Shown piece by piece: positions 17,355 to 64,000 of a DNA stretch of 64,000 nt. Under the pieces are notes generated by a model. It searched no databases, had not been told where the DNA came from, and saw only the letters and a program-made list of their open reading frames with translations. A program made the position numbers and the translations under genes. The stretch's first letter is position 1, and every line of letters begins with the position of its first letter. Source of the DNA: a virus; the IMG/VR virus record IMGVR_UViG_3300036770_006954, positions 62,001 to 126,000 of that record. One strand, given 5' to 3'.

Positions 17355-17662
17355 TGCCAGCTAATAACCCCAAGGTTTACGAACCTTTAGATTTAAATCA
17401 AACTGAACAAAACAATCTAACGGCAATTGCCGATTTGGAAAGAAAAAAATTAATCACTCGTAATGACTTTAAACAAGGTGCGGATGAATATGGTGTAACG
17501 AATTCACAGGCTCTTGCAGATGGTGATGATATGGGTAGAGGTACAGGTGTCTTCTTGGATGTGTACAATGACGCCGCAGGTACTAGTGTTGATGTATTTG
17601 AAAGAAAAGACGACATCAAAATCAACAAATACAATAGATTTAAAACATATCCTAACTTCTAA
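17354..17662 (+). CDS. hypothetical small protein
   Basis: 102 aa, starting on the last base of the previous stop codon and ending on the first base of the next ATG, so translation is tightly coupled. The sequence is acidic at first and rich in Asp, Asn and Thr. No domain was recognised; FKQGADEYGVTNSQALADGDD is the most distinctive segment. A small virion protein is the simplest reading from its neighbours. Confidence 0.6.
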   Translation: MPANNPKVYEPLDLNQTEQNNLTAIADLERKKLITRNDFKQGADEYGVTNSQALADGDDMGRGTGVFLDVYNDAAGTSVDVFERKDDIKINKYNRFKTYPNF

Positions 17663-18042
17663 TGAAACTAACTGAAGTCTTTAAATCTTTGATTACCGAA
17701 ATCGCTTCTGTAGATTCGGTAAGAAAATCTATTGAAGACAAACAAAAAATTATCATGTATTATGATGGTGATGAACCAGGTGGTAGGGGTTTAAGACTTA
17801 TTGAACCTGTTGCCCTTGGAAGAAGTAAAAGAGGTAATTTAGTTTTACGGGCTTGGGATGAGGAAGGTGCATCACACAGAGGATACTTAGGTACACGACC
17901 TATGCCGGGATGGAGATTATTCAAACTTGATAAAATATTGTCCTATAAACCGTCGGGTGAAAATTTTAATACACCAAGACCAAATTTTAACCCAACTGGT
18001 GACAAAGACATGACAAGTATTATTATTATAGCAAAATTCTAA
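17662..18042 (+). CDS. WYL-like small protein with a possible capsid-targeting N-terminus
   Basis: 126 aa. Residues 28-95 resemble the WYL/Sm-like fold: IIMYYDGDE, then GLRLIEPVALG, LVLRAWDEEG and FKLDKILSY follow the usual order of that domain (basic or aromatic substrate-binding face, iEP motif, frL-D-I strand). WYL domains in bacteria bind nucleic acid or nucleotide-type ligands as part of regulators; here there is no attached DNA-binding domain. The first 16 residues (MKLTEVFKSLITEIAS) match a recurrent N-terminal pattern in this phage (see findings) and could direct packaging into the prohead. Both assignments are inference. Confidence 0.6.
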   Translation: MKLTEVFKSLITEIASVDSVRKSIEDKQKIIMYYDGDEPGGRGLRLIEPVALGRSKRGNLVLRAWDEEGASHRGYLGTRPMPGWRLFKLDKILSYKPSGENFNTPRPNFNPTGDKDMTSIIIIAKF

Positions 18043-18045
18043 CAA

Positions 18046-18630
18046 ATGGACTTAGAAAAAATTATGTTGTCAAAGGCTATCATGGATAGACATAGCCAAA
18101 TGGATTCGGGTAGTGCCCCTAAACCAAAATCGAATACGGTTTTGGAAAACTATGATGCTCCCCAAGCAAGATATAATATTCCACAAGAATTTATGGGTGA
18201 AGCACCACAAAGAATGCAAATGCCACAAGCACCATCAATTCCTGTAAGTCCATTCGCTAACAAACCATATCCTGTAGCTTCATCAGAAGCCATCAAAAAT
18301 TCAAAACTACCTGATGCAATTAAAAAATTAATGATTGAGCACCCTATCGAACAACCAACTTCAATGTCTGGTGGGGCAGTTTTATCCGATGAATTAGTGG
18401 AAAGAGCATCAAGACTTATGGGTAATAATAAAAAACCTGTAATGGAACAAGCAATACCACATCAGAATACAGGTGACCTGAGAACTATATTAAAAGAAGT
18501 TGTTCAAGAAGTCTTGGCTGAGAATGGATTGTTGATGGAAGGTGCTGAAAAATCAAATGAATCATTCAGATTTCAAGTTGGAAAACATCTTTTTGAAGGG
18601 AAACTTACGAAAATCAAAAAATTATCTTAG
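18046..18630 (+). CDS. hypothetical virion-type protein
   Basis: 194 aa. The N-terminal 35 residues are helical and charged, followed by a Pro/Gln/Met-rich flexible stretch (about 40-100, e.g. QRMQMPQAPSIPVSP). A helical segment near 143-160 (DLRTILKEVVQEVLAENG) matches the L-x-x-I-x-x-x-V-x-E pattern found in other proteins of this phage. The C-terminal 25 residues (FRFQVGKHLFEGKLTKIKKLS) look like a small beta-barrel hairpin often seen at the end of phage virion proteins. No enzymatic motif. Last gene of the five-gene set. Confidence 0.65.
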   Translation: MDLEKIMLSKAIMDRHSQMDSGSAPKPKSNTVLENYDAPQARYNIPQEFMGEAPQRMQMPQAPSIPVSPFANKPYPVASSEAIKNSKLPDAIKKLMIEHPIEQPTSMSGGAVLSDELVERASRLMGNNKKPVMEQAIPHQNTGDLRTILKEVVQEVLAENGLLMEGAEKSNESFRFQVGKHLFEGKLTKIKKLS

Positions 18631-41870: not shown

Positions 41871-43385
41871 ATGTCAATTTATCGGTCGTATTTTAATAGA
41901 AACAATACTTTATTATCAAACCTTTACACCAACACCGCGAGAAATCCCGTGGTACAACTCAATTTTGGTAGTAGTGACCTTGTAGTCCCCAATTTTGGAT
42001 TCACCCGTTTTATATTTGATTTGGACTTAGAGGGTCTTGAAGAAATGATTGCCGATAAAGTTATTTCCACAGGTTGTACCACAGGAATGACACATACCCT
42101 TATGATGACAAATACATCATCGTTCGACGATGAACTCCTTAACACTAATATGAGTGACGGGAGAAAAAGAGCCACATCATTTGATTTAATACTTTTTAGG
42201 ATACCGAAATTTTCAGGGGACACAGGTTCACCACAAATATGGGACGAAGGTGTTGGGTACGATTATAATAATTTTGGAACTACCCAAAATGGACTTGCGG
42301 GAATGCAATCATCATTAGAACAACTAAACAATAAAAGTTTTTCTTTAAGACCATCTAACTGGTACCAAACAACCACCGTAACAAATTGGTCCGAACCAGG
42401 AATCTATAATAATAAAAACTCCCTAACAAGTCTTACAGGACTTAACTACTCATCAATTACAATAGTTGACGAACAAAGATTCGAATTGGGTAACGAAGAT
42501 ATCCAATTTGATATGACCGATGAGATAAACGGAATTTTAGACGGTTCAATCACAGGAGTAACAGGATGGGGTATTGCCTACAAACCCGATATTGAAAACA
42601 TTACAGGTTTAACAGAATCATACTCTGTTGGATTCTTCGGAAAATACACACAAACATTTTATCAACCATACCTTCTCACCAATTACGATGACTTGGTTAA
42701 AGACGACAGAAACCTTTTCCTAAAAAACCAAACAAACAAACTATACTTATATGTCTACCAAAATGGTGACTTTGCCAATTTAGACAATTTACCTGGTGTA
42801 AATATAGAAAACCAAAACGGGGACATTGTACAGGGGGGTAGTGGACTTACTACTTGTCAGGTAACAAAGGGTGTATATGAGGTAACCGTTCCGAATATAT
42901 TTGTGAATCAACCAACCCCGTGTCTATTTTACGATGTTTGGACAGGTCTTACAATCAATGGACAATCGTTACCTAATGTGACAAATCAGTTTGTTCTTCA
43001 AGCCTACAGTGCGGGAATTCAAATAGGTAGTAACTCACAAGAACCAAGTAAATATGGATTCAGTTTCTACGGTATTTTACAAAATGAAAAAATTCTCAAC
43101 ACCGAAATTCGAAAGATTGGGGTCGTGGCTAAGAAACAATGGACTTCTCAACATCAACTGGAGAACATTGACATCTACTATAGAGTTTATGTTAGAGAGG
43201 GGACAACTGAGGTTCAAGTACAGAATTGGACTCCTGTAAACCGTACTCCAAACGAATATTATTTCATATTTGATATGAGAGATAAGATACCGAATGAATA
43301 TTTTGTTGACATCCGTGTTAACACTAGTGGTGAAAAAGATATTTATAAGGACACGATTCAATTCCAAATTGTTAACAAGAAATGA
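41871..43385 (+). CDS. baseplate or tail structural protein
   Basis: 504 aa, strand-rich, Asn/Thr/Gly-rich, with two Cys near residue 65 (STGCTTGMTHTL) and no membrane segment. It has the composition of a tail or baseplate wedge protein. The N-terminus (MSIYRSYFNRNNTLL) and the C-terminal beta region (YYFIFDMRDKIPNEYFVDIRV) are the most distinctive parts. It overlaps the next gene by 4 bases. No named family recognised. Confidence 0.7.
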   Translation: MSIYRSYFNRNNTLLSNLYTNTARNPVVQLNFGSSDLVVPNFGFTRFIFDLDLEGLEEMIADKVISTGCTTGMTHTLMMTNTSSFDDELLNTNMSDGRKRATSFDLILFRIPKFSGDTGSPQIWDEGVGYDYNNFGTTQNGLAGMQSSLEQLNNKSFSLRPSNWYQTTTVTNWSEPGIYNNKNSLTSLTGLNYSSITIVDEQRFELGNEDIQFDMTDEINGILDGSITGVTGWGIAYKPDIENITGLTESYSVGFFGKYTQTFYQPYLLTNYDDLVKDDRNLFLKNQTNKLYLYVYQNGDFANLDNLPGVNIENQNGDIVQGGSGLTTCQVTKGVYEVTVPNIFVNQPTPCLFYDVWTGLTINGQSLPNVTNQFVLQAYSAGIQIGSNSQEPSKYGFSFYGILQNEKILNTEIRKIGVVAKKQWTSQHQLENIDIYYRVYVREGTTEVQVQNWTPVNRTPNEYYFIFDMRDKIPNEYFVDIRVNTSGEKDIYKDTIQFQIVNKK

Positions 43386-43864
43386 AAAAAATTATCAGAC
43401 TAACCGAAACAGATATTAAAAACTTGGTTCTAAGAGCTTTAAAAGAAGCGGAACATGAACATAACCGTTACATGTTTTTCAGCAACTTAGAGCAACTAAA
43501 AAGACAAGCTGAGAGGTTATTAGAACTTGATTCGGATGTAATACACTCAATTTTGGAGAATGGTCACGATTGGGCAGATGACCATATTACCGTTGCAAAA
43601 GAAAACCTTGACCAAGTGTTTGATTTCTTAATGGGTGAAACTCAAGGGATGGATGATGATGAAATGATAATGGTGGATGATGTCACTGTCTTGGAAGGTA
43701 AAAAAAAGACAGGAACAAAATTATGTGCTAGGGGTAAAGCGGCGGCTAAGGCTAAATATGATGTATACCCCTCTGCATATGCCAATGGTTACGCGGTACA
43801 AGTTTGTAAAGGAAAAAAACCAGGTCTTGACGGAAAAAAAAGATGTTCGGGGACCTATTGTTAA
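43382..43864 (+). CDS. small protein with capsid-targeting-like N-terminus and Cys/Lys-rich tail
   Basis: 160 aa. The N-terminus (MKKIIRLTETDIKNLVLRAL) matches the start of the last gene in the window and carries the repeated L-T-E-x-D-[IL]-x-x-[LI]-[VI] pattern. The acidic middle (about 95-110) leads to a C-terminal domain (116-160) with KLCARGKAAAKAKYDVYPSAYA and paired Cys residues, similar to small zinc-ribbon-like domains of large viruses (DUF5872-like). It may be an internal head protein. It overlaps the upstream gene by 4 bases. Confidence 0.65.
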   Translation: MKKIIRLTETDIKNLVLRALKEAEHEHNRYMFFSNLEQLKRQAERLLELDSDVIHSILENGHDWADDHITVAKENLDQVFDFLMGETQGMDDDEMIMVDDVTVLEGKKKTGTKLCARGKAAAKAKYDVYPSAYANGYAVQVCKGKKPGLDGKKRCSGTYC

Positions 43865-44664: not shown

Positions 44665-45277
44665 ATTCCTTGAGTACTTTTTGAATTAAATCTCTCAATC
44701 CCTCATTCTTTTTCTTTGATTTGTAAGAGGTCATAGTTGGTTTATTACCCTTACCAACTTTGGGCTCCTTTTTTTCTGCTCGTCTTTTTTGCGCACAAGC
44801 GGCTTTTTTTTCAGAGTCTGACATTTTAGCCGCAACTCCTGCCGCTCGGCATTTCGGGTAACCTTTTGATTCACCTTCAGGTCGACCACAAGGTGGATGC
44901 CCACCACCTTCTTTTTTTCTACATATATTAACCCATGGACCTTTGGGTTGTTTACTCCCTTTAGGTTTTTTTTTGGTACCAAACCAAACCGCCAAATCTT
45001 CCTTTAAAATGTCCTCTTTAAAAATTTTCTTTCTCATATTTTCAACTTTCTTAACATTTGTTTTAGTTTGTTTTTCATCTTTGGCAATTTGTTGTTTTGT
45101 TTTTTTTATCTCACCATCATATGAATCAAATGCAGTTTCATTATTAACATAACCTGAAACTTTTTCAGTATAAGGTCTGAGCTGTTCATCCTTCCAAACT
45201 CGTGGGGTAATATTTAATTTTCCTTTAAAAACACCATCACTTGATGATGTGGTACTCTCGTTGATTTTTCTTTTCAT
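44654..45277 (-). CDS. Lys-rich DUF5872-like protein
   Basis: 207 aa, highly basic. Residues 100-155 carry a Cys-containing segment (WVNICRKKEGGGHPPCGR, then GYPKCRAAG) like small zinc-ribbon domains in large viruses. The final 15 residues (LRDLIQKVLKESIG) match the amphipathic pattern seen at the N-termini of other proteins of this phage. The reading frame converges on the membrane-protein gene, overlapping by 11 bases. A nucleic-acid-binding or internal head protein is plausible. Confidence 0.65.
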   Translation of the reverse strand: MKRKINESTTSSSDGVFKGKLNITPRVWKDEQLRPYTEKVSGYVNNETAFDSYDGEIKKTKQQIAKDEKQTKTNVKKVENMRKKIFKEDILKEDLAVWFGTKKKPKGSKQPKGPWVNICRKKEGGGHPPCGRPEGESKGYPKCRAAGVAAKMSDSEKKAACAQKRRAEKKEPKVGKGNKPTMTSYKSKKKNEGLRDLIQKVLKESIG

Positions 45278-45594: not shown

Positions 45595-47388
45595 TTATCT
45601 CAATTCTCTCAAGTCGAATGTTCTAACACCATCAACTGTGATACGACCGTAGAAACGGTTGTTTACAACCTTCTTAGCGTATCTGGTCATGATACCCTTG
45701 ATAGGTGTAAAGTTGAATGGGTTGTACATTGTTGGAGTGAGTTGTAAAGGTACATATGGAGCGTAGATGTAACCTGTGTCAAGTAACGATGTACCTTTGT
45801 GACCCAACAACACTTGGTTTGCTGGGAAGTAAGGGTCACGGTAAACTTGATATCTACCTGCCAATGTTCCAACTCTCTCAATACCCATGTTGTATTGGTC
45901 TTGCTCAGGAGCTGCGTTTGATACGTGGAAGTACTCCAAGTCATCAAAGATTGCAGAAACCTCAGAAGATACAACAATCCAGTTAGCACCACCTCTTAAG
46001 GTAGACTTGTGGATTTGTGCTGAAATTTGGTTAATTGCAGTGATAAGAGTTTGGTTCCAGTCCTTCTGAGTGTAAGGAGTAGTACCTTGAGAGAATCTCT
46101 TCCATCCGTTGTAGTCCCAACGAAGGTTCCAAGATGCTGCTTTTCTCAAATCTCTTAAGATTTCACGGTCGATTTCCGCAGCTACTTGTTCTGACAATAA
46201 AGCTGTCAATTCAGCTTCAGCGTCGATATTGTGGAACGCAGCTACGTCCTGAGCCATTTCAGGTGACCATTGAGCTCTAAGTTTTCTTTCAGTAACCGAT
46301 ACAGTCACAGACTGAAGGTCGAAAGAAACTTCACCAATTTTATCTTCGAATTCAAGATTCTTGTAGATTCTGTAAGTTGCTGTAAACGCAGAATCATTTG
46401 CAGTTGTTGAAGAGAATGTTGAACCAGTGTATCCGTCAAGTGATGAATCACCACAAGAGATACAAACAGGAACTTGAAGGTCTACTTCGAGGTAAATTTT
46501 ACCTTCAGCGTCACAAACATTGTAGTAAGTACCACCATCAGTCAAACTGTTAGGGAATACCAATGAAGTGTCCTGACCGTATTCCACAATACCCTTACCG
46601 TATCTCTGAGTAACAACTCTAAATAGGTAATTGTTATTTACATTCGCAGAAGTTGTTGGGTTACCAGCAACACCACGGATTTGTAGGTCAGTCAAGAATT
46701 CTTCAGTGTCCATAGGTTGACCGTTTGGTCCAATCAATTGACCAGCTCCAGCTGAAGCAAATCCAGACATCATGATGTAAACTTTTCTGTAATTATCAGT
46801 GTCATATCCTGTAACAATCAAAGAATCTCCTTGCCATGCTACTGTTCTTGTACCAGCTGTGATAGCCGAGAATGAACCTTTTGAGTAGTCGTAAAGTCCT
46901 GGTGGGTCCAAAGCAGGTTCGTTACCTTCGTAGAATCTATCGTAAAGGTCTTTAGTGTTGTTGTAGTCATAACCACTGTTTGGAGTCTGACCAGCAGCCG
47001 CGTTAGGTGCGCCGAAAGGTGCCCAGTGCTCGTTAGCGTTAGCTCCAGTGTAAGACTGAATGTTTGGTACGAAGTAGAACAACTTACCGATAGGAAGGTT
47101 CATCGCTTGTACCGAAACGATGTCGTTAGCCAAAAGTTTAGAGAATACTCTTCTTACGATTGGGAAAACAACAGTTTCAAATGAACCTGTATCTGCAGTT
47201 GATGATGCTTCGTTGATGAGATAAGACGCTTGGTTTTCATACAACTGAGCGATGTTCTCTTTAAGGTGTCCGTTAAGTCCATCGAGGAAACCTAACTTGT
47301 CCCATTTGTTGATTGTATCTTCTTTGATAACCTTAAGGTGCTTAAGACCGATGTTACCAACAAGACCACTTTCTAATAATGCTCCCAT
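45595..47388 (-). CDS. major capsid protein, T4 gp23-like
   Basis: 597 aa. The gp23-type core is recognised by FPIVRRVFSKLLANDIVSVQAM (about 75-96) and the late GIMTRYAKKVVNNRF segment. The N-terminal 60 residues form the expected prohead delta-like region, ending with LINE at 57-60 followed by Ala61. This fits the gp21 cleavage rule (I/L-x-E, cut after Glu) and is close to the T4 cut after residue 65. No signal or membrane segment. It is the last gene of the head operon, directly behind the scaffold gene and in front of a bidirectional terminator. Confidence 0.95.
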   Translation of the reverse strand: MGALLESGLVGNIGLKHLKVIKEDTINKWDKLGFLDGLNGHLKENIAQLYENQASYLINEASSTADTGSFETVVFPIVRRVFSKLLANDIVSVQAMNLPIGKLFYFVPNIQSYTGANANEHWAPFGAPNAAAGQTPNSGYDYNNTKDLYDRFYEGNEPALDPPGLYDYSKGSFSAITAGTRTVAWQGDSLIVTGYDTDNYRKVYIMMSGFASAGAGQLIGPNGQPMDTEEFLTDLQIRGVAGNPTTSANVNNNYLFRVVTQRYGKGIVEYGQDTSLVFPNSLTDGGTYYNVCDAEGKIYLEVDLQVPVCISCGDSSLDGYTGSTFSSTTANDSAFTATYRIYKNLEFEDKIGEVSFDLQSVTVSVTERKLRAQWSPEMAQDVAAFHNIDAEAELTALLSEQVAAEIDREILRDLRKAASWNLRWDYNGWKRFSQGTTPYTQKDWNQTLITAINQISAQIHKSTLRGGANWIVVSSEVSAIFDDLEYFHVSNAAPEQDQYNMGIERVGTLAGRYQVYRDPYFPANQVLLGHKGTSLLDTGYIYAPYVPLQLTPTMYNPFNFTPIKGIMTRYAKKVVNNRFYGRITVDGVRTFDLRELR

Positions 47389-47418: not shown

Positions 47419-49020
47419 TTAGAGTTTATTCATTAAATCCTTAATTCTTAAGTATTGAGGATTTTCATATGTTTTAGACTCAATCAAGGTTGCTGCTGAA
47501 CCAGAAGTTTTTGTTGTGTTCAACTGTCTTTCAACACTTTCTGAAATATTTTTCATGTCTGTGTTTGAAAGTTCATCCTTGACAGTTTTATAGAGTTGCT
47601 TTGATTCTTTAAGAGATTCTACAGAATCAAATCTTCTCAAGATATTTATTTTTTCTTTTTTGGTAGTGGAATGTTCAGTAAATAATCTTGTTGCGTATGC
47701 CAAGTTTGAGTTAAAAACTGCAACTTCGTTGAGTTTCTCTCTAAAGACATTAAGAGCTTTTCTGTACTCTTCATTCTTCTCTCTTAACATGTTTAATTCC
47801 GCTTCAACAGCCTCTACTTTAACACCATTATCACCATAAACATAATTTCTGTTGTTTGTGATACCTTTTCTTAACCCTCTACCTTCTTTTGACCCCATAC
47901 CATAAGTTCTAGCAGCCTCTTTGGTTTCTTCCTTGGTTTCATAGTCTTTCTTGCCAGGATGTGTCTTAGATTTGTCACCTTTGTTACCACCGAATTTTCC
48001 TTCGTAGTCTTTGTAGTGACCATCTTTACCTTCACCAGCTTTCTTCTCAACACCACCTACTTTCTTGCGTCTGTATTCGTGTTTGTCAGAACCCCAGTTC
48101 TTATCCTTACCTTCTTCCATTTCACCCTCTTTGAACTCAAATTTTGCTTTACCAGTACCCATAGCTTTAGGTCCAGCCTTTTTGTGGTCATCAAATCCTT
48201 TTTTAGGTAAAGTACTATCGTACTTAAATTTAGGATGACCCATACCTACGCCTTTTGGTTTTACAGTCATTTTAGCTTCTGAAAGGTCATAATCTTCAGT
48301 ATGAAGTTTATCGTCCTTCATATCCAATTCCAAATCACGAATATGTGCCGCGTCATCTTTTTCAGCTCCACGGTAATGGTCATATTCTTCATCGTCCTCT
48401 TCAGAAAGGTCCATCTCTTCCTCGTCCATTTCTATCTCATACATGACTTCGTCTTCTTCTTCCATAGTTTCAGATGACGAATAAAGAGCATCTAAAACAG
48501 CGTCCAAGTCAGGGTCGTCTTCAACATCAAGTTCGTCGAATTCCATTTCTTGTTCGTCCATTTCCATTTCTTCCATCATTTCATCTTCCTCATCCATTTC
48601 AGATTCGTCGAGTTTTACAATGTATTCTACATCTTCATTCTCGTCAGTGATGTGAACTTCATTTTCGTCTTTTACAACTACGATTCCATCTTCAGGTCCC
48701 ATAGCCTTGAAAGCCTTAATAACTTCCTCATCTGACATATCTGTCATATCGATAGTTTCTTCATCCGAATCAAAATCCATATCGAATTCATCTTCAGAAT
48801 CTTCCATATTATCAACATCGCTATCCATGTCAAAATCCATGTCTAGCTCAGTATCAACTTCAACCTCATCTTCTTGTTCTGAGAGAGATTCCTTTACTAA
48901 CTGACTGATTTCTTCCTTCATTGTAGAAGCAAGTATTCCTTTTGCGTTTTCGGCAATGACTTCTTCAACATTTTTCATTTGAATAAGTGCCTCTTCAACT
49001 AAATTTTTAGTTTCTTGCAT
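47419..49020 (-). CDS. prohead core/scaffold protein, gp22-like, very acidic
   Basis: 533 aa. Extremely acidic (Asp/Glu tracts at about 50-230), a Lys-rich central segment and a coiled-coil C-terminus (about 400-490, LREKNEEYRKALNVFREKL). The layout fits a scaffold that is packed inside the prohead and later degraded by the protease. It lies immediately upstream of the capsid gene, as in T4-like phages. It carries several I/L-x-E sites. Sequence homology to T4 gp22 is not visible; the call rests on position, length and charge. Confidence 0.8.
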   Translation of the reverse strand: MQETKNLVEEALIQMKNVEEVIAENAKGILASTMKEEISQLVKESLSEQEDEVEVDTELDMDFDMDSDVDNMEDSEDEFDMDFDSDEETIDMTDMSDEEVIKAFKAMGPEDGIVVVKDENEVHITDENEDVEYIVKLDESEMDEEDEMMEEMEMDEQEMEFDELDVEDDPDLDAVLDALYSSSETMEEEDEVMYEIEMDEEEMDLSEEDDEEYDHYRGAEKDDAAHIRDLELDMKDDKLHTEDYDLSEAKMTVKPKGVGMGHPKFKYDSTLPKKGFDDHKKAGPKAMGTGKAKFEFKEGEMEEGKDKNWGSDKHEYRRKKVGGVEKKAGEGKDGHYKDYEGKFGGNKGDKSKTHPGKKDYETKEETKEAARTYGMGSKEGRGLRKGITNNRNYVYGDNGVKVEAVEAELNMLREKNEEYRKALNVFREKLNEVAVFNSNLAYATRLFTEHSTTKKEKINILRRFDSVESLKESKQLYKTVKDELSNTDMKNISESVERQLNTTKTSGSAATLIESKTYENPQYLRIKDLMNKL

Positions 49021-49372: not shown

Positions 49373-50089
49373 TTAACGATTTAAATAATCGGTTAATTTT
49401 TTCATTAAATCAACTGACTTACCCATTCCAGAGTCAGAAATTTTCTGTTTTTTTTCTTCCTCGAGGTTTTCCTCGTACATTGACCTCTCTTCGGGGGAGT
49501 TAAATAGGTAAGCACCAGGAGTTGACGGTGAAGATACCAAGTCGAAACAGATAAGTTCAAAATCGTCCTGTACTTCATTTTGTTCTCCCTTTTTAGCCAA
49601 AGACCCAACACCACGCGATGAAACACCCATTGTTACACCTTGTCTCATGAGGTTTGCTGCGATATCTCCCTTGGTTGATACAATACCACTCTCATGGAAT
49701 CCTGGTGATGTAAGGAGTTTTAATTTACCCATAAGGATATGACCATCCCACCATATGTCTGTAATAAGGTGTGATACTCTATCCAAATCAATCAATGATG
49801 ATTCAGGGTGATTTAACTCAGAGGTTGATAAACCTTTTTTAATTGCGGTTTTATATCTGTCAGCCTCTCTTTTTAAAATTCTCTCAGGGTATACTCTTCC
49901 ATTTCTATTTGGGACACCAAATTTTTGAAGAACAGCATAGAACTCAAATGGGTTACGATAATCCATTTGTTTTTGTTCTTTCAAAAATGACTCATTGAGT
50001 GGGTCAGAGGGTGAAATGTAACCAGCGTCCATTTCAATCAATATACCCTTACCCGTTTCTCTTGGCCCAAGAATGTGCAAATCTTTCAT
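49373..50089 (-). CDS. prohead core protease, gp21-like
   Basis: 238 aa. The His-Ser protease motifs of the gp21/herpesvirus-assemblin type are present: ELNHPESS with His94 and GVSSRGVGS with Ser157 or Ser158. The protease activates in the prohead and cuts capsid, scaffold and internal proteins after I/L-x-E. It is downstream of the portal-side genes and upstream of scaffold and capsid, the T4 order. A TATTTAT motif precedes it. Confidence 0.9.
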   Translation of the reverse strand: MKDLHILGPRETGKGILIEMDAGYISPSDPLNESFLKEQKQMDYRNPFEFYAVLQKFGVPNRNGRVYPERILKREADRYKTAIKKGLSTSELNHPESSLIDLDRVSHLITDIWWDGHILMGKLKLLTSPGFHESGIVSTKGDIAANLMRQGVTMGVSSRGVGSLAKKGEQNEVQDDFELICFDLVSSPSTPGAYLFNSPEERSMYEENLEEEKKQKISDSGMGKSVDLMKKLTDYLNR

Positions 50090-50831: not shown

Positions 50832-51519
50832 ACTCTTCTAATTTCTTTAACTTTACATAATTAACTTGGTCGAATTTTTCAGTTTCAATCTTTTCAATGG
50901 TTTCATTAATTTTAGATTGAATATCTGACTCTTCTTGTTTGGAGAGCAAAACCTTCAGTTTGTTAATTGTCGACTCCTTAAGAGTTGAGTACTCACTTTC
51001 CAAATCTTCATTCTTAGACGCTAAGATATGAAATACCTCTTTCTTGGTCACCTCATCCAAACTCTCTATGTATTTTCCAATAGTTTGATTGGCAATCGTA
51101 ACCATCGACTTCAAAGGAATTTTAGGGCTTTCATTTAAACCTTTTGCAGTAGACATAAGATTACTAATTAATCTTTTTTTTGACGACAACCTTTTGTGAA
51201 TATTCACATTTTCAAAATACACCAAATTATCAATATCTTGGTAAATATTTGAAGATTTTTCCCCATTTTTTGGTAATGAAGCATTCTCTAACAAATGTCT
51301 AATTACATTTACAGATTCTTCTAAAAATTCTTTGGCGTCGTTTTCAGATAATCCTTGTGGTGTATTAAGGTCATCATAAATGGAATAAACCTTTGAAAAA
51401 GATTTATTTTTCAAAACATTATGTTTGAATTCTTTTAATGTTTGCTTGAAAGTAGAAGAGTCTTTGTAGGACTCTACCAAGTTTTTTTCGATAATCGATT
51501 TAATTTGTCCGAAGGTCAT
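50812..51519 (-). CDS. hypothetical helical head-module protein
   Basis: 235 aa, almost entirely helical, charged. The start (MTFGQIKSIIEKNLVES) is of the amphipathic type repeated in this phage. It sits just downstream of the portal gene, where T4-like phages carry small prohead-core proteins, and has I/L-x-E sites. It may be a core or internal protein cut by the protease. The 3' end overlaps the bS21 gene on the other strand by 20 bases. Confidence 0.65.
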   Translation of the reverse strand: MTFGQIKSIIEKNLVESYKDSSTFKQTLKEFKHNVLKNKSFSKVYSIYDDLNTPQGLSENDAKEFLEESVNVIRHLLENASLPKNGEKSSNIYQDIDNLVYFENVNIHKRLSSKKRLISNLMSTAKGLNESPKIPLKSMVTIANQTIGKYIESLDEVTKKEVFHILASKNEDLESEYSTLKESTINKLKVLLSKQEESDIQSKINETIEKIETEKFDQVNYVKLKKLEESILLDS

Positions 51520-51539: not shown

Positions 51540-51547
51540 ATAAATAT
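51540..51547 (-). promoter_or_regulatory. TATTTAT-type candidate late promoter
   Basis: Minus-strand ATATTTAT 20 bases before the ATG at 51519, touching the end of the portal gene. Confidence 0.4.
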
Positions 51548-53424
51548 TAGGAATTTAACAACTTATCTAACTCTTCTTCTATTTTACCTAAACTTTGTTG
51601 TGCAATACCCAAATTAAGAAACTGACTACCATATAAATCGGTCTCAATTAAAAGATTCATGTCTTTATTTTGAGTAGATTCGGGAGTAATTTCCGCCTCT
51701 TCAGGTGCGGTTCCTTCTTCAGGGGTTTCACCACCTAATTCAGCACCAAGGTCACCACCCAAGTCACCACCAATCTCAGGACCCGCATCAAAACTACCAC
51801 CACCACCAAATGCTGCCGCCGCTGGTTCAGAAGTTTCTCCTGGAGGTGCTTGTGGAGCCCCTTCACCAGGTTTGTTTCCGTACAACTTATCAAGTTGGTC
51901 GAACAATCCTGTCTTAGAAATTACTGTTGGAGTATTCTTCAACTCCTCACCAATAGCTCTTTCCATTCTCTGTTGTAGAAGGTCAGTTCTGATTTCATCA
52001 TCTGACCAATTAAAAATGTGTTTCTTGGCCCAAGTAGATGACGCTGGTTGAATACCATTACCTGGGTCTGAAACTAAATCACGATACAATAGAACTTTTT
52101 CTTTCCAAATATCAACCTTGAGTAGGTCGGCTTGCGTTGATGGGTTAGTAAGACCTAAGGTAAAATTAGAAATCTCCTCTTCAAACCCAAGTAGAAATAA
52201 GTGAATGATTGCAATCTTGTTAAGTTCTTGCAACATCGACTTTTGAATTCTATTAATGGTTCTTGCAAATCGGATATCCATCAGAGCCAAAGTTTTACCA
52301 TCACCAACAACTTCCTCAAAACCTAAAAACGCCTTAGGAATTCTAAGAGCAGTAACAAGTTTTTTCTGAATGTATTCGATGTCTGCAATTTCCGAAAGAT
52401 TTTGAGCACCAGGTAAAGTTTCGATTGGCGATGGTTGTGCTGGGTCCCTTACAGGAATGAAGAAGTCTTGGTCTACAGCCATTTGGTTGAATCTCATGTC
52501 TACATTACCTGTCTTTGAATCTACAATTTGTTCTCTCTTGAACTTGTTGGCAACACGCTGTACATAAGCCTCAACATCATCATCGTTCATGTTTCCAACA
52601 TAAACTTTAAAGATTCTTCTCTCAGGCGCTCGTGAAGTACGATAAATCAACATAGCATCTTCAGATAACAAAAGTTGTTTCCAAATACGACGAGACTTTT
52701 CTAACATAGAAGTACCGTAAGGTAGTTTTCTATCGTCACCTAATAATCTAAAGTGAGCAATTTCCCATGTTTGGAACTCCATATTTTGAGTTTTCCAAGT
52801 GAATCTTAATCCCTTGTCTTCAGTATTATTTTGTGGAACACCAACCGAAGCATTTCTTGTAGAAAGACCTTGCTCAAATCGTTCAATTTCGATGTTCGGA
52901 AGTTGTTGACAACCAATAACCCCCTTTTCAGGGTCCAATCTCATATAAACGAAATTATCACCGTATTTACAAGTGTTTCTTGTCCACATCGGTAAATTGG
53001 TGTTAATATCCAAAGCATTGTTGAATAAATCGGCTAATACTGATTTAATCCTTTTTGATTCAGAATAAATTTGAAGAATTTGACCGTCCTCGTTTGGTGT
53101 GGTGGATTCTTCGGCATAGATATCCAAAGCTGCTGAGATTTCTGGAGTATACTCCATAGATTCATAATCGTAATACGAAGCCAGTCTGTTTGGTTCGTAG
53201 TAGATTGCTTGGGTGTATAAATTGTTTTCAACTTTAGCAAACTGATTCGCTAAATAAAAAGATTGTTTGGCTTGGAGTTTCTCTCTTTCGTATTCTGTCT
53301 TGTCAGTTGTCCTGAGGAGTTCTCTTTTGTCTAACTTATAGACAGGAAAATCTTGGTTCATTAAGGCATCGGGCCCCAAAGCCCTTGTCAGTCTTTGCCA
53401 AACCGTTAGATTTCTATTTTCCAT
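51547..53424 (-). CDS. portal protein, gp20-like
   Basis: 625 aa. It has the T4-like portal body: EYTPEISAALDIYAEEST (near 90-107), a SPIETLPGAQNLSEIADIEY stretch near 330-350 and IPKAFLGFEEVVGDGKTLALM further on. The last 90 residues are Pro/Gly/Ala/Glu-rich (APPGETSEPAAAAFGGGG), an unusual flexible tail not found in T4 gp20. The portal ring nucleates the prohead and docks terminase. It lies directly downstream of the terminase gene and has a GTATTTAT motif upstream. Confidence 0.9.
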   Translation of the reverse strand: MENRNLTVWQRLTRALGPDALMNQDFPVYKLDKRELLRTTDKTEYEREKLQAKQSFYLANQFAKVENNLYTQAIYYEPNRLASYYDYESMEYTPEISAALDIYAEESTTPNEDGQILQIYSESKRIKSVLADLFNNALDINTNLPMWTRNTCKYGDNFVYMRLDPEKGVIGCQQLPNIEIERFEQGLSTRNASVGVPQNNTEDKGLRFTWKTQNMEFQTWEIAHFRLLGDDRKLPYGTSMLEKSRRIWKQLLLSEDAMLIYRTSRAPERRIFKVYVGNMNDDDVEAYVQRVANKFKREQIVDSKTGNVDMRFNQMAVDQDFFIPVRDPAQPSPIETLPGAQNLSEIADIEYIQKKLVTALRIPKAFLGFEEVVGDGKTLALMDIRFARTINRIQKSMLQELNKIAIIHLFLLGFEEEISNFTLGLTNPSTQADLLKVDIWKEKVLLYRDLVSDPGNGIQPASSTWAKKHIFNWSDDEIRTDLLQQRMERAIGEELKNTPTVISKTGLFDQLDKLYGNKPGEGAPQAPPGETSEPAAAAFGGGGSFDAGPEIGGDLGGDLGAELGGETPEEGTAPEEAEITPESTQNKDMNLLIETDLYGSQFLNLGIAQQSLGKIEEELDKLLNS

Positions 53425-53466: not shown

Positions 53467-55227
53467 TTACCTCCCAAATAACCACCCATACTTTTGATAA
53501 TCAGTTCTACTTGCAGTATAATCTTTGGAATGAATCATACCGGGGTCTTTAAACTGAGGTAACGATGGATTAAAATATTCAGATTTTTCTTTGTTTTCAG
53601 TAACTATGGTTGACCAAGAATCTAACATTGCCTTAGTATGGTTTACAACTTTAACCAATGAAGGAAAGGCTGCCTCTGCAACATAAGTTGCCATTGCAAT
53701 AGACATAATACAATCGTCATGATGGCCTTTTTGGTGGTCGGGTCTTCCATTGATGTAAACAAAAGTTCCCATTTCATTTACTAATCTACTCGAACGAATC
53801 TTAAATTCATGTCTAATTGATTCTTCAAAAGAAGCGATAATTTGAACTCTTTTGTTGTTAAAATTGATTCCTGGTATTTTTTCTTTAACCCTAGGGTCAT
53901 ATTTCCATTTATTTGCCATGTCGATTCCATCATAGAAAAAATTTTCATATCCTATTTCTTGTAACTTTCGTGCAGTTGCAACACCCATTCCACCTGTCAA
54001 ATCAATAACACAAAGGGCACTATACATAATACCCCACTTATAAGCGATTTCGGCTAATGTATCGGGTGGTATTTTACCAACAAATTCTAATACCTGTTCT
54101 TTTTCATCAAAATCAATAATTTCAATACAAGAAAAATCCTCAGAATCCCCTCGAGAAACATCAATACCCATTACATATTTGTGACCATTTATAGGTTCTT
54201 TCCAAATCCATAATTGACCACCAACTAATTTGGCACTCGGTTCTCTAACATCATTTTTTTGAATATCCTGTAAAAGTTGTGAATCGAATACATTATCACC
54301 CGAACCTAAGAAATTACACTCCAATTCTTGAGCAACCTTTCTCCTATCATATTTGAGTTTTTTAACCATACTCTCAAACCAAGAAGAACAAGGTTTGTAA
54401 CCATCTTCAATATATTTGTGAAGAGTTTCCAAACTTCTTTCCCTTCTATTTTCTGCGGATAAATCAATGACAACATCAGAAGGATATTCATGTTTGTTAA
54501 GTAGGTAATGGACTAAATCGTTAGTCTTAACCATATACAAATCTTTGGTGTATCGGGGGTCACGATACCAATACATTTCAGTGATTTTGAAATCATTCAT
54601 ACCACGAAGTGCTTGGTCATAGATTTCGTAGTAAATTGGGTCAAAACCGTTAGGTGTTGAAATCACTACGACTTTACCTCCGGTAGAAAGAGATGCCATA
54701 CAAGCAGCCCAGAAATCACTGTCGGCTTCAATAAACGCCGCCTCATCAAAAATAAGTGTGGTGGGGGTGTATCCACGAAGTGCGTCTCGTGAAGTTGCAA
54801 CCGCTTTTACCTCGCACCCATTTGTTAGTTTGAAGTGGCGTGCAGAATTTTTTTCAGGTGCAAACCCAATACCAACCCAACTTGGCCATTGTTCAGTAAA
54901 CCCACGAATTTTATTTGCAAATTCTACTGATGTATCTAACTTATTGGCAATGATTAGAATTTTTTCAGGTTTTTCTTTTCGAGCAAAGGCTAGTCTTTTA
55001 CTAGCCCATGCTGCGGTTACTGTAGAGACACCCGCCTGACGATACTTTAATGCAATGTTTTCATTGTATTCCTCATAGTCCTCCACCAATTGAACTTGGT
55101 CTTGGAATAACTCTAAGGGTACATATCGGGATACTGTGTTATCGTAAGTCTGTAAATAAGTTTTTAGAGCGTAAGGAGTGCTCTTCATGCACTTCTTATA
55201 CTCAATAATAACTTGTTCTTTTGTCAT
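53467..55227 (-). CDS. large terminase subunit, gp17-like
   Basis: 586 aa. ATPase motifs: KYRQAGVST (61-69, Walker A-like) and LIFDEAAF (158-165, Walker B), with a coupling-motif region after VISTPNGFD. Nuclease domain: VMGIDVSRGDSEDFSCIEI near 353-371 (RNase H-like first Asp) and GHHDDCIMSIAMA near 520-532 (last acidic pair). It packages DNA through the portal. It overlaps neither neighbour but is only 6 bases from the upstream gene. No separate small terminase was recognised in this window. Confidence 0.95.
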   Translation of the reverse strand: MTKEQVIIEYKKCMKSTPYALKTYLQTYDNTVSRYVPLELFQDQVQLVEDYEEYNENIALKYRQAGVSTVTAAWASKRLAFARKEKPEKILIIANKLDTSVEFANKIRGFTEQWPSWVGIGFAPEKNSARHFKLTNGCEVKAVATSRDALRGYTPTTLIFDEAAFIEADSDFWAACMASLSTGGKVVVISTPNGFDPIYYEIYDQALRGMNDFKITEMYWYRDPRYTKDLYMVKTNDLVHYLLNKHEYPSDVVIDLSAENRRERSLETLHKYIEDGYKPCSSWFESMVKKLKYDRRKVAQELECNFLGSGDNVFDSQLLQDIQKNDVREPSAKLVGGQLWIWKEPINGHKYVMGIDVSRGDSEDFSCIEIIDFDEKEQVLEFVGKIPPDTLAEIAYKWGIMYSALCVIDLTGGMGVATARKLQEIGYENFFYDGIDMANKWKYDPRVKEKIPGINFNNKRVQIIASFEESIRHEFKIRSSRLVNEMGTFVYINGRPDHQKGHHDDCIMSIAMATYVAEAAFPSLVKVVNHTKAMLDSWSTIVTENKEKSEYFNPSLPQFKDPGMIHSKDYTASRTDYQKYGWLFGR

Positions 55228-61014: not shown

Positions 61015-61440
61015 TTAGGAAAGTTTCTTTATTTCATCTCTAAGTTCTATTGCTTTTTCAAAGTCTTGTTGGTCGACTGCTTTCATTAGTTGGAAGTTGA
61101 GGTCATCAATTTTGACTTTGTTGTCTTCCAAGTTTTTAATCTTGTCACGAAGTTCAACCGCTTTTTCAAACTCTTGGAGGTCCACCGCTTTTTTAAGTTC
61201 TTTTTTGAGACGCTCCAAGTTTGTAGATTCTTCGGTTTGTGGGGTACTACCTTGGGTTGACCTGAAGATTGTGGTGAATTGAATCATTCCATCTTCAGAG
61301 GTAAAGGTTTCTTTTGACCAATCCCCCAATTCATCTTTACCGGTTTCTTTTTGGGTTTTACCTTTATAGACAAATGGGTCTTGGTTTAACAAGGAGTTAA
61401 AAAGGTTGTCAAATTCGTCAAGTAATCTTCTTCTAAACAT
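61015..61440 (-). CDS. UVR-motif protein, possible Clp adaptor
   Basis: 141 aa from the ATG at 61440. The frame is open 40 codons farther, but that stretch has no domain and lies in the divergent promoter region, so the shorter start is preferred. Two UVR motifs fill the C-terminal half (about 75-105 and 112-141), each with A-V-D-x-Q-[ED]-F-E-K-A-[VI]-E-L-R-D. The N-terminal half has no zinc-binding cysteines, unlike McsA. UVR motifs bind UvrA/B-type proteins or Clp ATPases. The divergent neighbour is a ClpC with its own UVR segment, so an adaptor role is plausible. Confidence 0.75.
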   Translation of the reverse strand: MFRRRLLDEFDNLFNSLLNQDPFVYKGKTQKETGKDELGDWSKETFTSEDGMIQFTTIFRSTQGSTPQTEESTNLERLKKELKKAVDLQEFEKAVELRDKIKNLEDNKVKIDDLNFQLMKAVDQQDFEKAIELRDEIKKLS

Positions 61441-61585
61441 TTTTTTAATTTTTAATTTGTTTATTTGACCCTGATAAGACAAGTCCTGTACCAAATCAAA
61501 ATAACTGACAAAATGTCCGAAATAGTTGTATTTGTAAATAATTTCCTGACACGATGTCAAATATCAAGAAAATTCTGACAAGGGT

Positions 61586-61616
61586 TTGGAATTGTCCTTT
61601 TTTTGATTAACCTTTG
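61586..61616 (+). promoter_or_regulatory. Bacteroidota-type promoter (TTG-N20-AACCTTTG) for clpC
   Basis: TTG at 61586-61588, exactly 20 bases, then AACCTTTG at 61609-61616, one base from the TAnnTTTG consensus. It has the same spacing as the element at 43858. Confidence 0.5.
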
Positions 61617-61637
61617 TACAAATCAATTTTAATAATC

Positions 61638-63638
61638 ATGAACGACACATTAGGAGACGACGATAAGACACTTTCGAGAAAGAAACCTACCTCCGACTCG
61701 GGAACCCCCGTATTGGATAACTTCTCTCGGGACTTGAACAAATTGGCGGAACAAGGAAAACTCGACCCAGTAATTGGTCGTGAGAAAGAAATTGTTCGCA
61801 TTGCTCAAATCTTGTCTCGTAGAAAGAAAAACAACCCTATTATCTTGGGGGAGCCAGGTTCTGGTAAAACCGCATTGGTTGAAGGATTGGCATCTCTGAT
61901 TGTGAATGGGGAATGTCCTAAAAACCTTCTTGACAAGCGTATTGTCAATTTGGACCTTACCGCAGTGGTGGCAGGGACAAAATACCGTGGTCAGTTTGAG
62001 GAGCGTCTAAAGGTTATCCTTGAAGAACTCTCCAATAATCCCAACATTATTGTCTTCATTGATGAAATTCACACATTGATTGGTTCAGGTAACTCATCAG
62101 GTAGTTTGGATGGTTCAAACATCTTCAAACCCGCACTTGCTCGTGGAGAAATCCAATGCATCGGTGCAACCACCTTGGACGAGTATCGTAAGTCATTTGA
62201 GAAGGATGGAGCTTTGGAGCGTCGATTCCAAAAGGTAATCGTGGACCCCTCAACGGTTCAAGAGACAATCCAAATCCTCACCAACATCAAAGACCGCTAC
62301 GAGGCTTTCCACAAAGTGGCATACTCTCAAGAGATTATCGAACTCTGTGTACAACTCGCAGACCGATACATCACCGACCGTGAGTTCCCTGACAAAGCAT
62401 TTGACATCTTGGATGAAGTTGGTGCCCGTAGTCAAACCGAGCAAAAGATTCCTGAAGTAATTGAGGACCTCAAGCAAAAGGCTGCGGAAATCAAACAACA
62501 AAAGATGGATGTTGTTAAGAAGCAGAACTACGAAGAAGCTGCATCCCTTCGGGACAAGGAGCGTAAAATCCTTGCCAAACTTGAAGAGGAAAAGCGCAAA
62601 TTCGCAGAAGAATCTGCAACTACCCGTATCCCCATCTCCGTGGAGCAAGTCTACGATGTGGTTTCCAACATGACCAAAATCCCTGTGAGCAAAATGTCCA
62701 TTGACGACACCAACTCACTTATCAATATGGACAAAGTCCTTATGGAGAAGGTAATTGGTCAAGACGAAGCCGTTTCCAAGATTGTTAAATCAATCCGTCG
62801 TAACCGAATCGGAATTAAAGACCCCAACCGTCCCATCGGTTCATTCATCTTCTTGGGTTCAACAGGTGTGGGTAAGACCCACTTGGCAAAACAGATTGCA
62901 AAGGAGATGTTCGGGTCAGAAGATGCGTTAATCCGCGTCGACATGAGCGAATATCAAGAGAAACATACTTTGTCTCGTTTGGTAGGAGCACCTCCGGGAT
63001 ATGTCGGTTACGAAGAAGGTGGACAACTCACCGAACAGGTAAAAAACAAACCTTATTCTGTTATCCTGTTTGATGAAGTGGAGAAAGCCCACAAGGACAT
63101 CTTCTCAATCCTCCTTCAGATTCTTGATGATGGTCACGCAACCGATTCCCTCGGTCGAAAAATCAATTTCAAGAACACCCTTATCATCATGACCACCAAC
63201 CTCGGAGTTAAGAAACTTCAAGACTTCGGAGCTGGAATCGGGTTCTCCTCAAACAAGTACTCAAACGAGGAAGCCAAGAAACAAATCTTGATGAAGGAAA
63301 TGAAGAACTTTTTCTCTCCCGAATTCCTCAACCGTATCGATGACACCATCGTGTTCCAAACACTCACGAAGGACAACATCGAGAAGATTGTAGGATTGGA
63401 ACTTCAGAAACTCTCGAAGCGACTCGGTGAGATGAAGTACAAAGTGGTGATGGACCCCACCGTTACAGAGTACATTGCAAAAGTCGGTTTTGATGATGTA
63501 TACGGAGCTCGTCCTGTAAAACGAGCCATCCAAGACAAAATCGAAGATTACCTCTCGGAGCTTATCCTAATAGGTAAACTTAAAGAAAACCGAAAATACA
63601 CCTTAAAGGTAGTAAATGAAGAGGTGAAAATCTCTTAA
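61638..63638 (+). CDS. clpC: ClpC-type AAA+ unfoldase without the N-terminal repeat domain
   Basis: 666 aa from the ATG at 61638. AAA-1: GEPGSGKT 71-78 and VFIDEIH 139-145. Middle: a UVR-type helix about 285-312 (DVVKKQNYEEAASLRDKERK). AAA-2: GSTGVGKT 407-414 and ILFDEVEKAH 476-485. An IGF tripeptide at 534-536 sits where ClpP-binding loops lie in ClpC/ClpX, so it may dock host ClpP. The Clp N domain is absent: only about 28 residues precede AAA-1. Base and codon use look richer in G+C than the flanking genes, suggesting recent acquisition from a bacterium. Terminator follows. Confidence 0.9.
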   Translation: MNDTLGDDDKTLSRKKPTSDSGTPVLDNFSRDLNKLAEQGKLDPVIGREKEIVRIAQILSRRKKNNPIILGEPGSGKTALVEGLASLIVNGECPKNLLDKRIVNLDLTAVVAGTKYRGQFEERLKVILEELSNNPNIIVFIDEIHTLIGSGNSSGSLDGSNIFKPALARGEIQCIGATTLDEYRKSFEKDGALERRFQKVIVDPSTVQETIQILTNIKDRYEAFHKVAYSQEIIELCVQLADRYITDREFPDKAFDILDEVGARSQTEQKIPEVIEDLKQKAAEIKQQKMDVVKKQNYEEAASLRDKERKILAKLEEEKRKFAEESATTRIPISVEQVYDVVSNMTKIPVSKMSIDDTNSLINMDKVLMEKVIGQDEAVSKIVKSIRRNRIGIKDPNRPIGSFIFLGSTGVGKTHLAKQIAKEMFGSEDALIRVDMSEYQEKHTLSRLVGAPPGYVGYEEGGQLTEQVKNKPYSVILFDEVEKAHKDIFSILLQILDDGHATDSLGRKINFKNTLIIMTTNLGVKKLQDFGAGIGFSSNKYSNEEAKKQILMKEMKNFFSPEFLNRIDDTIVFQTLTKDNIEKIVGLELQKLSKRLGEMKYKVVMDPTVTEYIAKVGFDDVYGARPVKRAIQDKIEDYLSELILIGKLKENRKYTLKVVNEEVKIS

Positions 63639-63704: not shown

Positions 63705-64000
63705 ATGAAAAAAATCGTTAAATTAACTGAAAGTGACCTCACAAGAATCATCGAAAGAGTCATTTCAGAACAAGAAAAAATTGAACTACCTGCAAAGGAG
63801 TTAAAGTCGGTCATTGAACCTGCCAAAGTTGCTCAAATTAAATCTCAAGCAGATGTATTGGCTCAAGACACAGAGTTAATCAAAAATACATTGGATTTAA
63901 TTAGAAGAATTGACCCTGAATCATATCAAATGATTACCAAAGGACAAACCCCTAATAAAAGAACTGTATTGGGTGACGCAATTATCGGTGGAACTTTGTT
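63705..64000 (+). CDS. virion-type protein, cut by the window edge
   Basis: First 98 codons only. The N-terminus (MKKIVKLTESDLTRIIERVI) is nearly the same as that of the 160-aa protein at 43382 and fits the repeated targeting-like pattern, with ISE at 20-22 as a possible gp21-type cut site. The next part is helical and charged (LPAKELKSVIEPAKVAQIKSQ is typical). A glycine-containing hydrophobic stretch begins near the edge. A late motif precedes it, so late expression as an internal head protein is the best guess. Confidence 0.65.
   Translation, partial: MKKIVKLTESDLTRIIERVISEQEKIELPAKELKSVIEPAKVAQIKSQADVLAQDTELIKNTLDLIRRIDPESYQMITKGQTPNKRTVLGDAIIGGTL

What the first reader, a model, noticed from the sequence alone, without database searches (positions are those of the whole stretch)
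43382..43444. Repeated N-terminal peptide that may target proteins into the prohead
MKKI[IV][RK]LTE[TS]D[IL] at 43382 and 63705, MKLTEVFKSLITE at 17662, and similar amphipathic segments in 18046, 44654, 50812 and 56507 proteins resemble the short leaders of T4 internal proteins in length, position and presence of I/L-x-E cut sites. They may be a capsid-targeting signal removed by the gp21-like protease.
Basis: partly seen in the sequence, partly recalled or inferred. Interest (0 to 1): 0.65.

Follow-up and report, generated by a model that had tools for sequence, protein, structure and literature searches.

The report
Phage leader peptides for head packaging
A large T4-like phage, and many relatives known only from environmental DNA, put one short starting peptide on many unrelated proteins; the peptide ends in the sequence that T4-type head proteases cut, so these proteins are probably loaded into the virus head, trimmed there and perhaps injected into the next host.

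Summary
MKK[IV][IV][KR]LTESDLxRIVKRVIxE (22 residues) starts the proteins at 43382 and 63705 and a third gene just past the window. The genome carries a T4-type head module with an S77 (gp21-like) protease. Conservation collapses after E22. Among 43 relatives of the 43382 protein only M1 and E22 of the leader are invariant. The tag ends I-x-E, as T4 gp21 requires, like the capsid protein's own inferred site LINE|A. Sixteen of 17 tag-bearing records above 140 kb encode the protease. Two further leader families, on 44 and 55 body clusters, were found. Best reading: T4-style capsid-targeting propeptides with new sequences. Targeting, cleavage and ejection are inferred, not shown. A new variant of a known kind.

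The parts
43382..43447 (+). Leader peptide 1, MKKIIRLTETDIKNLVLRALKE; predicted cut after E22
   Evidence: Tag profile 33.8 bits; M1 and E22 the only invariant leader residues in 43 relatives
43448..43864 (+). Body of the first tagged protein: helical domain plus Cys/Lys-rich C-terminal domain (phrog_27331)
   Evidence: PHROG 1.2e-14; relatives; low-confidence model
63705..63770 (+). Leader peptide 2, MKKIVKLTESDLTRIIERVISE; predicted cut after E22
   Evidence: Tag profile 51.0 bits
63771..64000 (+). Body of the second tagged protein; gene runs on to 64043 outside the window
   Evidence: G000:125705-126043
17662..17700 (+). A different 13-residue leader, MKLTEVFKSLITE; predicted cut after E13
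   Evidence: [ILV]xE in 58/58 relatives, the only such column in the family
17701..18042 (+). WYL-like domain protein carried behind that leader
   Evidence: Pfam WYL 3.4e-4, 21.0 bits, just under the 21.8 cut-off; fold matches PafBC 3.5e-4 and BrxR 3.1e-3, probability 1.00
45257..45277 (-). Short leader of the 44654 protein, MKRKINE; predicted cut after E7
   Evidence: [ILV]xE in 41/41 relatives
44666..44698 (-). Tag-like C-terminal end of the 44654 protein, LRDLIQKVLKE followed by SIG
   Evidence: Best C-terminal score in the proteome, 12.1 against 4.8 next; [ILV]xE in 39/39 relatives
51472..51519 (-). N-terminal 16 residues of the 50812 protein, MTFGQIKSIIEKNLVE, between portal and protease genes
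   Evidence: Conserved 33/33 but the family is conserved throughout
49373..50089 (-). S77 prohead protease (gp21-like), the presumed cutter
   Evidence: Pfam Peptidase_S77 5.7e-23; phrog_207 2e-43
45595..47388 (-). Major capsid protein gp23; inferred propeptide 47209-47388 ends LINE|A at E60
   Evidence: Pfam Gp23 9.2e-74; LINE conserved in all 19 close relatives
47419..49020 (-). Acidic scaffold-like protein (gp22 position); N-terminal segment ISQLVKESLSE|Q loosely resembles the tag's second half
   Evidence: Position between protease and capsid genes and alignment over 20 genomes; resemblance only suggestive
51547..53424 (-). Portal protein gp20
   Evidence: Pfam 1.4e-76
53467..55227 (-). 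Terminase large subunit
   Evidence: Pfam 8.3e-13; phrog_2 4.9e-38

Best explanation
The repeated N-terminal peptide is a capsid-targeting propeptide of the T4 kind with a new sequence. During prohead assembly the peptide, an amphipathic helix behind a short LTESD cap, docks the protein on the scaffold core. The S77 protease then cuts after the glutamate of I/L-x-E (E22), and the freed body stays in the head with the DNA; it may be ejected into the next host. Shown here: the repeat, its sharp end at E22, its spread over unrelated bodies, its near confinement to phages, co-occurrence with the S77 protease, and agreement with the inferred capsid protein site. Inferred: docking, cleavage, residence in the head and ejection.
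For: E22 in 129/136 distinct tags and conservation collapsing at residue 23. One leader on 97 body clusters. In relatives found by body alone, only M1 and E22 of the leader are invariant, and E22 is the only conserved [ILV]xE column in the protein. S77 in 27 of 43 tag records and in 16 of 17 above 140 kb, with gp23; records without S77 lack portal and terminase too, apart from one cut at its terminase. Capsid protein LINE|A[ST] in the same genomes. T4 gp21 cuts after L/I-X-E and T4 internal proteins carry such leaders (PMC9026906; PMC5694885). Five matches in 84,980 cellular genomes. Other leader families of the same design, 19 of 23 large records with S77. Cargo is small: median 110 residues, 94% at most 250.
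Against: No virion proteomics or cleavage data. The random-contig control for S77 is small (3 of 8 records of at least 60 kb). One 171-kb tag record (G040) has no recognised S77, gp23, portal or terminase; it may be a fragment. One tag protein lies in a chromosome-like bacterial contig (L275). The residue after the cut varies (Q, S, E, N, D). Cargo is not generally basic as T4 internal proteins are (median pI 5.7).
Confidence: 0.78

Rival explanations
1. The leader is a processing site only. The proteins reach the head through their bodies (DNA binding, core binding), and the peptide merely allows protease trimming or keeps the protein inactive until maturation.
For: In relatives of 43382 the only invariant leader residue apart from M1 is the glutamate of the cut site; the upstream half varies or is missing.
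Against: The full 22-residue tag is kept almost unchanged on unrelated bodies, far more than a three-residue cut site needs.
Confidence: 0.1
2. The peptide is a docking or degradation tag unrelated to the head: for host factors, membranes, or a Clp-type ATPase such as the one encoded at 61614-63638.
For: It is an amphipathic helix, and one tagged gene lies next to a Clp-type ATPase gene.
Against: It does not explain the invariant I/L-x-E end, the matching capsid protein site or the co-occurrence with S77.
Confidence: 0.06
3. The repeat is not a leader: either recent duplicates of one gene, or a conserved DNA element at gene starts (translation or recombination).
For: Several tag genes often lie side by side, as recent duplicates would.
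Against: Codon position 3 is the most variable (entropy 1.12 against 0.66 and 0.38). Bodies fall in 97 unrelated clusters.
Confidence: 0.03

Closest known systems
T4 capsid-targeting sequences (CTS) of internal proteins IPI, IPII, IPIII and Alt, with gp21 protease (PMC9026906, PMC5694885)
   Same: Short N-terminal peptide ending in I/L-x-E, shared by proteins with different bodies, in a genome with gp20, gp21-like protease and gp23; hydrophobic and glutamate positions at -3 and -1 of the cut.
   Different: 22 residues instead of about 10 for IPIII, with a different sequence; spread over far more body families; also other leader families; bodies not generally basic. Cleavage and targeting not demonstrated.
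Propeptides of phiKZ-like giant phage head proteins (SPN3US, 201phi2-1; PMC5694885)
   Same: Prohead protease cuts after a glutamate in a short motif; two SPN3US paralogues share an identical 15-residue N-terminus.
   Different: Those propeptides are mostly over 100 residues and the SPN3US motif is A-x-E; here 7-22 residues and I/L-x-E.
Flavobacterium phage vB_FspM_immuto and Microcystis phage Mel-JY01 (nearest cultured phages by capsid protein)
   Same: Same head gene set with prohead protease; immuto has two proteins starting with another repeated leader that ends IITE|S.
   Different: Capsid protein only 41-42% identical over 55-56% of the query; the LTESDL tag is absent from immuto.

Membership tests
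T4-type capsid-targeting sequence | Short N-terminal peptide (about 7-20 residues in T4) shared by proteins with different bodies | tested here: met
   22 residues on 97 body clusters
T4-type capsid-targeting sequence | Ends at a prohead protease motif L/I-X-E | tested here: met
   E22 in 129/136, position 20 I/L/V in 136/136; E22 invariant in 43 relatives
T4-type capsid-targeting sequence | Gp21-type (S77) protease and gp23-type capsid in the same genome | tested here: met
   Window. Relatives: 16 of 17 records above 140 kb
T4-type capsid-targeting sequence | Sequence similarity to the T4 IP propeptides themselves | not tested
   T4 propeptide letters were not fetched; only the published motif was used
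T4-type capsid-targeting sequence | Protein incorporated into the prohead because of the peptide | not testable with these tools
   Needs a packaging assay
T4-type capsid-targeting sequence | Peptide removed in the mature virion by the protease | not testable with these tools
   Needs virion proteomics or a cleavage assay
WYL domain (body of 17662) | WYL sequence profile and fold | tested here: inconclusive
   Pfam 21.0 bits, just under the 21.8 cut-off; best fold matches PafBC, BrxR, CapW and DriD with probability 1.00 but TM about 0.5

The most novel reading that the evidence does not exclude
T4-like phages of this group use a small vocabulary of interchangeable leader peptides (LTESDL..VIxE, MKIIITESQY..LxE, EFxxMQKLAGIITE, MKLxxxLKxLIxE), some copied from the ends of their own scaffold protein, as an address code that loads a rapidly changing set of small effectors, WYL-domain proteins among them, into the head for injection. 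The leader would then label a large share of otherwise unknown phage genes as virion-borne effectors. The scaffold link rests on the immuto and Mel-JY01 scaffold C-termini ..QVSRWQKLAGIIK and ..VERMKKLAGIVK matching the third leader.
Probability: 0.35. Interest if true: 0.82.

Novelty: new variant of a known kind. Interest (0 to 1): 0.64.

Why it matters
T4 internal proteins such as IPI are injected and counter host defences, but outside the T-even phages such cargo is hard to recognise because the bodies evolve fast. A recognisable leader would let one list predicted head-borne proteins across uncultured T4-like phages: 94 representative tagged proteins gave almost no Pfam or PHROG match. It makes a concrete prediction about each: inside the virion, starting at residue 23. 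It may also supply new packaging tags.

Tried and rejected
tblastn of the 23-residue tag against annotated phages and plasmids found nothing at E 1; so short a query has little power there, so this is not proof of absence. The idea that the tag copies the scaffold segment ISxLVKESLxE of this phage group was tested and is only suggestive: -1.1 bits with the tag profile, below controls; with the core matrix it is the best or second-best window in roughly half of the scaffolds compared. A capsid-protein stretch IVRRVF scored higher in the alignment scan and is taken as chance. 18046 and 56507 were tested as leader bearers and rejected. One search used a query that I had mistyped after residue 46; it is discarded and replaced. 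The random-contig control for S77 is too small to give a strong statistic. AlphaFold of the 43382 protein is low-confidence overall (pLDDT 63.8) and was not used for fold claims. No paper in the library contains the tag peptides (open-licence papers only).

Full report
Setting. The window is bases 62001-126000 of a 171,629-base virus record. It encodes a T4-type head module on the minus strand: terminase 53467-55227, portal 51547-53424, an S77 prohead protease 49373-50089, an acidic scaffold-like protein 47419-49020 and a gp23-type capsid protein 45595-47388. The nearest cultured relatives by capsid protein are Microcystis phage Mel-JY01 and Flavobacterium phage immuto, at 41-42% identity over about 55% of the protein. 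The host is not established.

Observation. The two MKKI..LTE[ST]D[IL] N-termini are present at 43382 and 63705, and the pattern is not expected by chance (0 in 100 shuffles). A third gene with the same start lies 0.9 kb beyond 63705, outside the window. With a tag profile these three stand alone in the proteome; reversed and shuffled controls reach 4.7 and 8.2 bits against 33.8-51.7.

Spread. Residues 1-22 are conserved, E22 in 129 of 136, and conservation collapses at residue 23. The exceptions include proteins with an insert before the glutamate (LTESDLHRIVKESVxRVLxE). The bodies are unrelated: 135 distinct bodies fall in 97 clusters, almost none with a Pfam or PHROG match. Codon third positions vary most, so the peptide is what is conserved. 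Up to 11 tag genes occur per record, and the reversed pattern gives none. Among 84,980 cellular genomes only five matches exist. Three are in contigs of one metagenome bin, one of which carries a terminase-like protein by eye; one has no clear open frame; one (L275) sits in a chromosome-like Bacteroidales contig.

Link to the protease. Of 43 tag records searched (the window's own and 42 others of at least 60 kb), 27 have S77, among them 16 of the 17 above 140 kb, and 25 have gp23 above cut-off. Almost all records without S77 also lack portal and terminase; one has a terminase 1.2 kb from the contig end, so they look like fragments. Random contigs: 3 of 50, or 3 of 8 of at least 60 kb; this control is small. 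Published work states that T4 gp21 cuts C-terminal to L/I-X-E and that T4 internal proteins carry short N-terminal targeting propeptides (PMC9026906; PMC5694885). In the tag, positions 20 and 22 are I/L/V and E. The capsid proteins of 19 close relatives share LINE|A or LINE|S where T4 gp23 is cut (position inferred by alignment; T4 site from memory).

Independent relatives. Searching with the body of 43382 alone gave 80 relatives. Nearly all keep a leader; the LTESD half is often lost or changed, but the glutamate stays: in 43 aligned sequences only M1 and E22 of the leader are invariant, and E22 is the only conserved [ILV]xE column in the whole protein. Searching with the body of 17662 alone gave 80 relatives whose 13-residue leader keeps E13 with I/L/V-x before it in 58 of 58, again the only such column. 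The body of 17662 is a WYL-like domain. The 44654 family keeps MKxKINE|S or similar in 41 of 41 and a tag-like C-terminal end in 39 of 39. The 50812 family keeps NLVE|S but is conserved throughout; it sits where T4 has core proteins gp67 and gp68 (gene order from memory). 18046 and 56507 show no conserved N-terminal site; 18046 has an internal stretch such as LSASDIKKIVRETVEEVLSEN in relatives that resembles the tag.

Other leaders. MKIIITESQYKxLxE (99 distinct, 44 body clusters) and EFxxMQKLAG[IL]ITE|S (90 distinct, 55 body clusters, N-terminal in 96 of 119) show the same design; 19 of 23 large records carrying them have S77. The third leader matches the scaffold C-terminus of immuto and Mel-JY01, which suggests a way of docking: imitation of a scaffold end. 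This is the most speculative point.

Conclusion. The most likely function is T4-style capsid targeting followed by removal by the S77 protease. Repeat, boundary, modularity, phage confinement and protease co-occurrence are shown; docking, cleavage, head location and ejection are inferred.

Noticed in passing
L006:4402-4812 (G000 about 129902-130312, outside the window) and G000 130-149 kb: The phage record carries a tmRNA (Rfam RF00023, 84.6 bits; not called by ARAGORN) and 27 tRNA matches; many short ORFs there with RDSNPRP-like peptides look like read-through of tRNA genes.
   Followed up: partly
61614-63638 (+): Clp-type protein with two AAA+ modules (Pfam AAA_2 3.3e-69, ClpB_D2-small 1.8e-23), directly upstream of the second tagged gene; a UVR-motif protein lies at 61015-61560.
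   Followed up: partly
17701-18042 (+): WYL-like domain protein behind a short leader; WYL domains are known from regulators of bacterial defence such as BrxR and CapW, so it may be an injected regulator or counter-defence protein.
   Followed up: partly
18046-18630 (+), relatives L844-L857: Family with an internal tag-like segment near the C-terminus (LSASDIKKIVRETVEEVLSEN in relatives), very like the insert form of the tag; unexplained.
   Followed up: partly
44666-44698 (-): The 44654 protein also ends in a tag-like segment DLIQKVLKE|SIG, conserved in 39 of 39 relatives, so both ends may be trimmed, as reported for T4 Alt.
   Followed up: partly
L275:6701-7210: A tag-bearing protein in a chromosome-like Bacteroidales contig without phage genes close by.
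   Followed up: no
G000:154795-160214 (outside the window): Four neighbouring minus-strand genes whose N-terminal regions contain SLVSEQ, FLLSEASG, TLSEQ and MIEQE: a possible further leader type, read by eye only.
   Followed up: no
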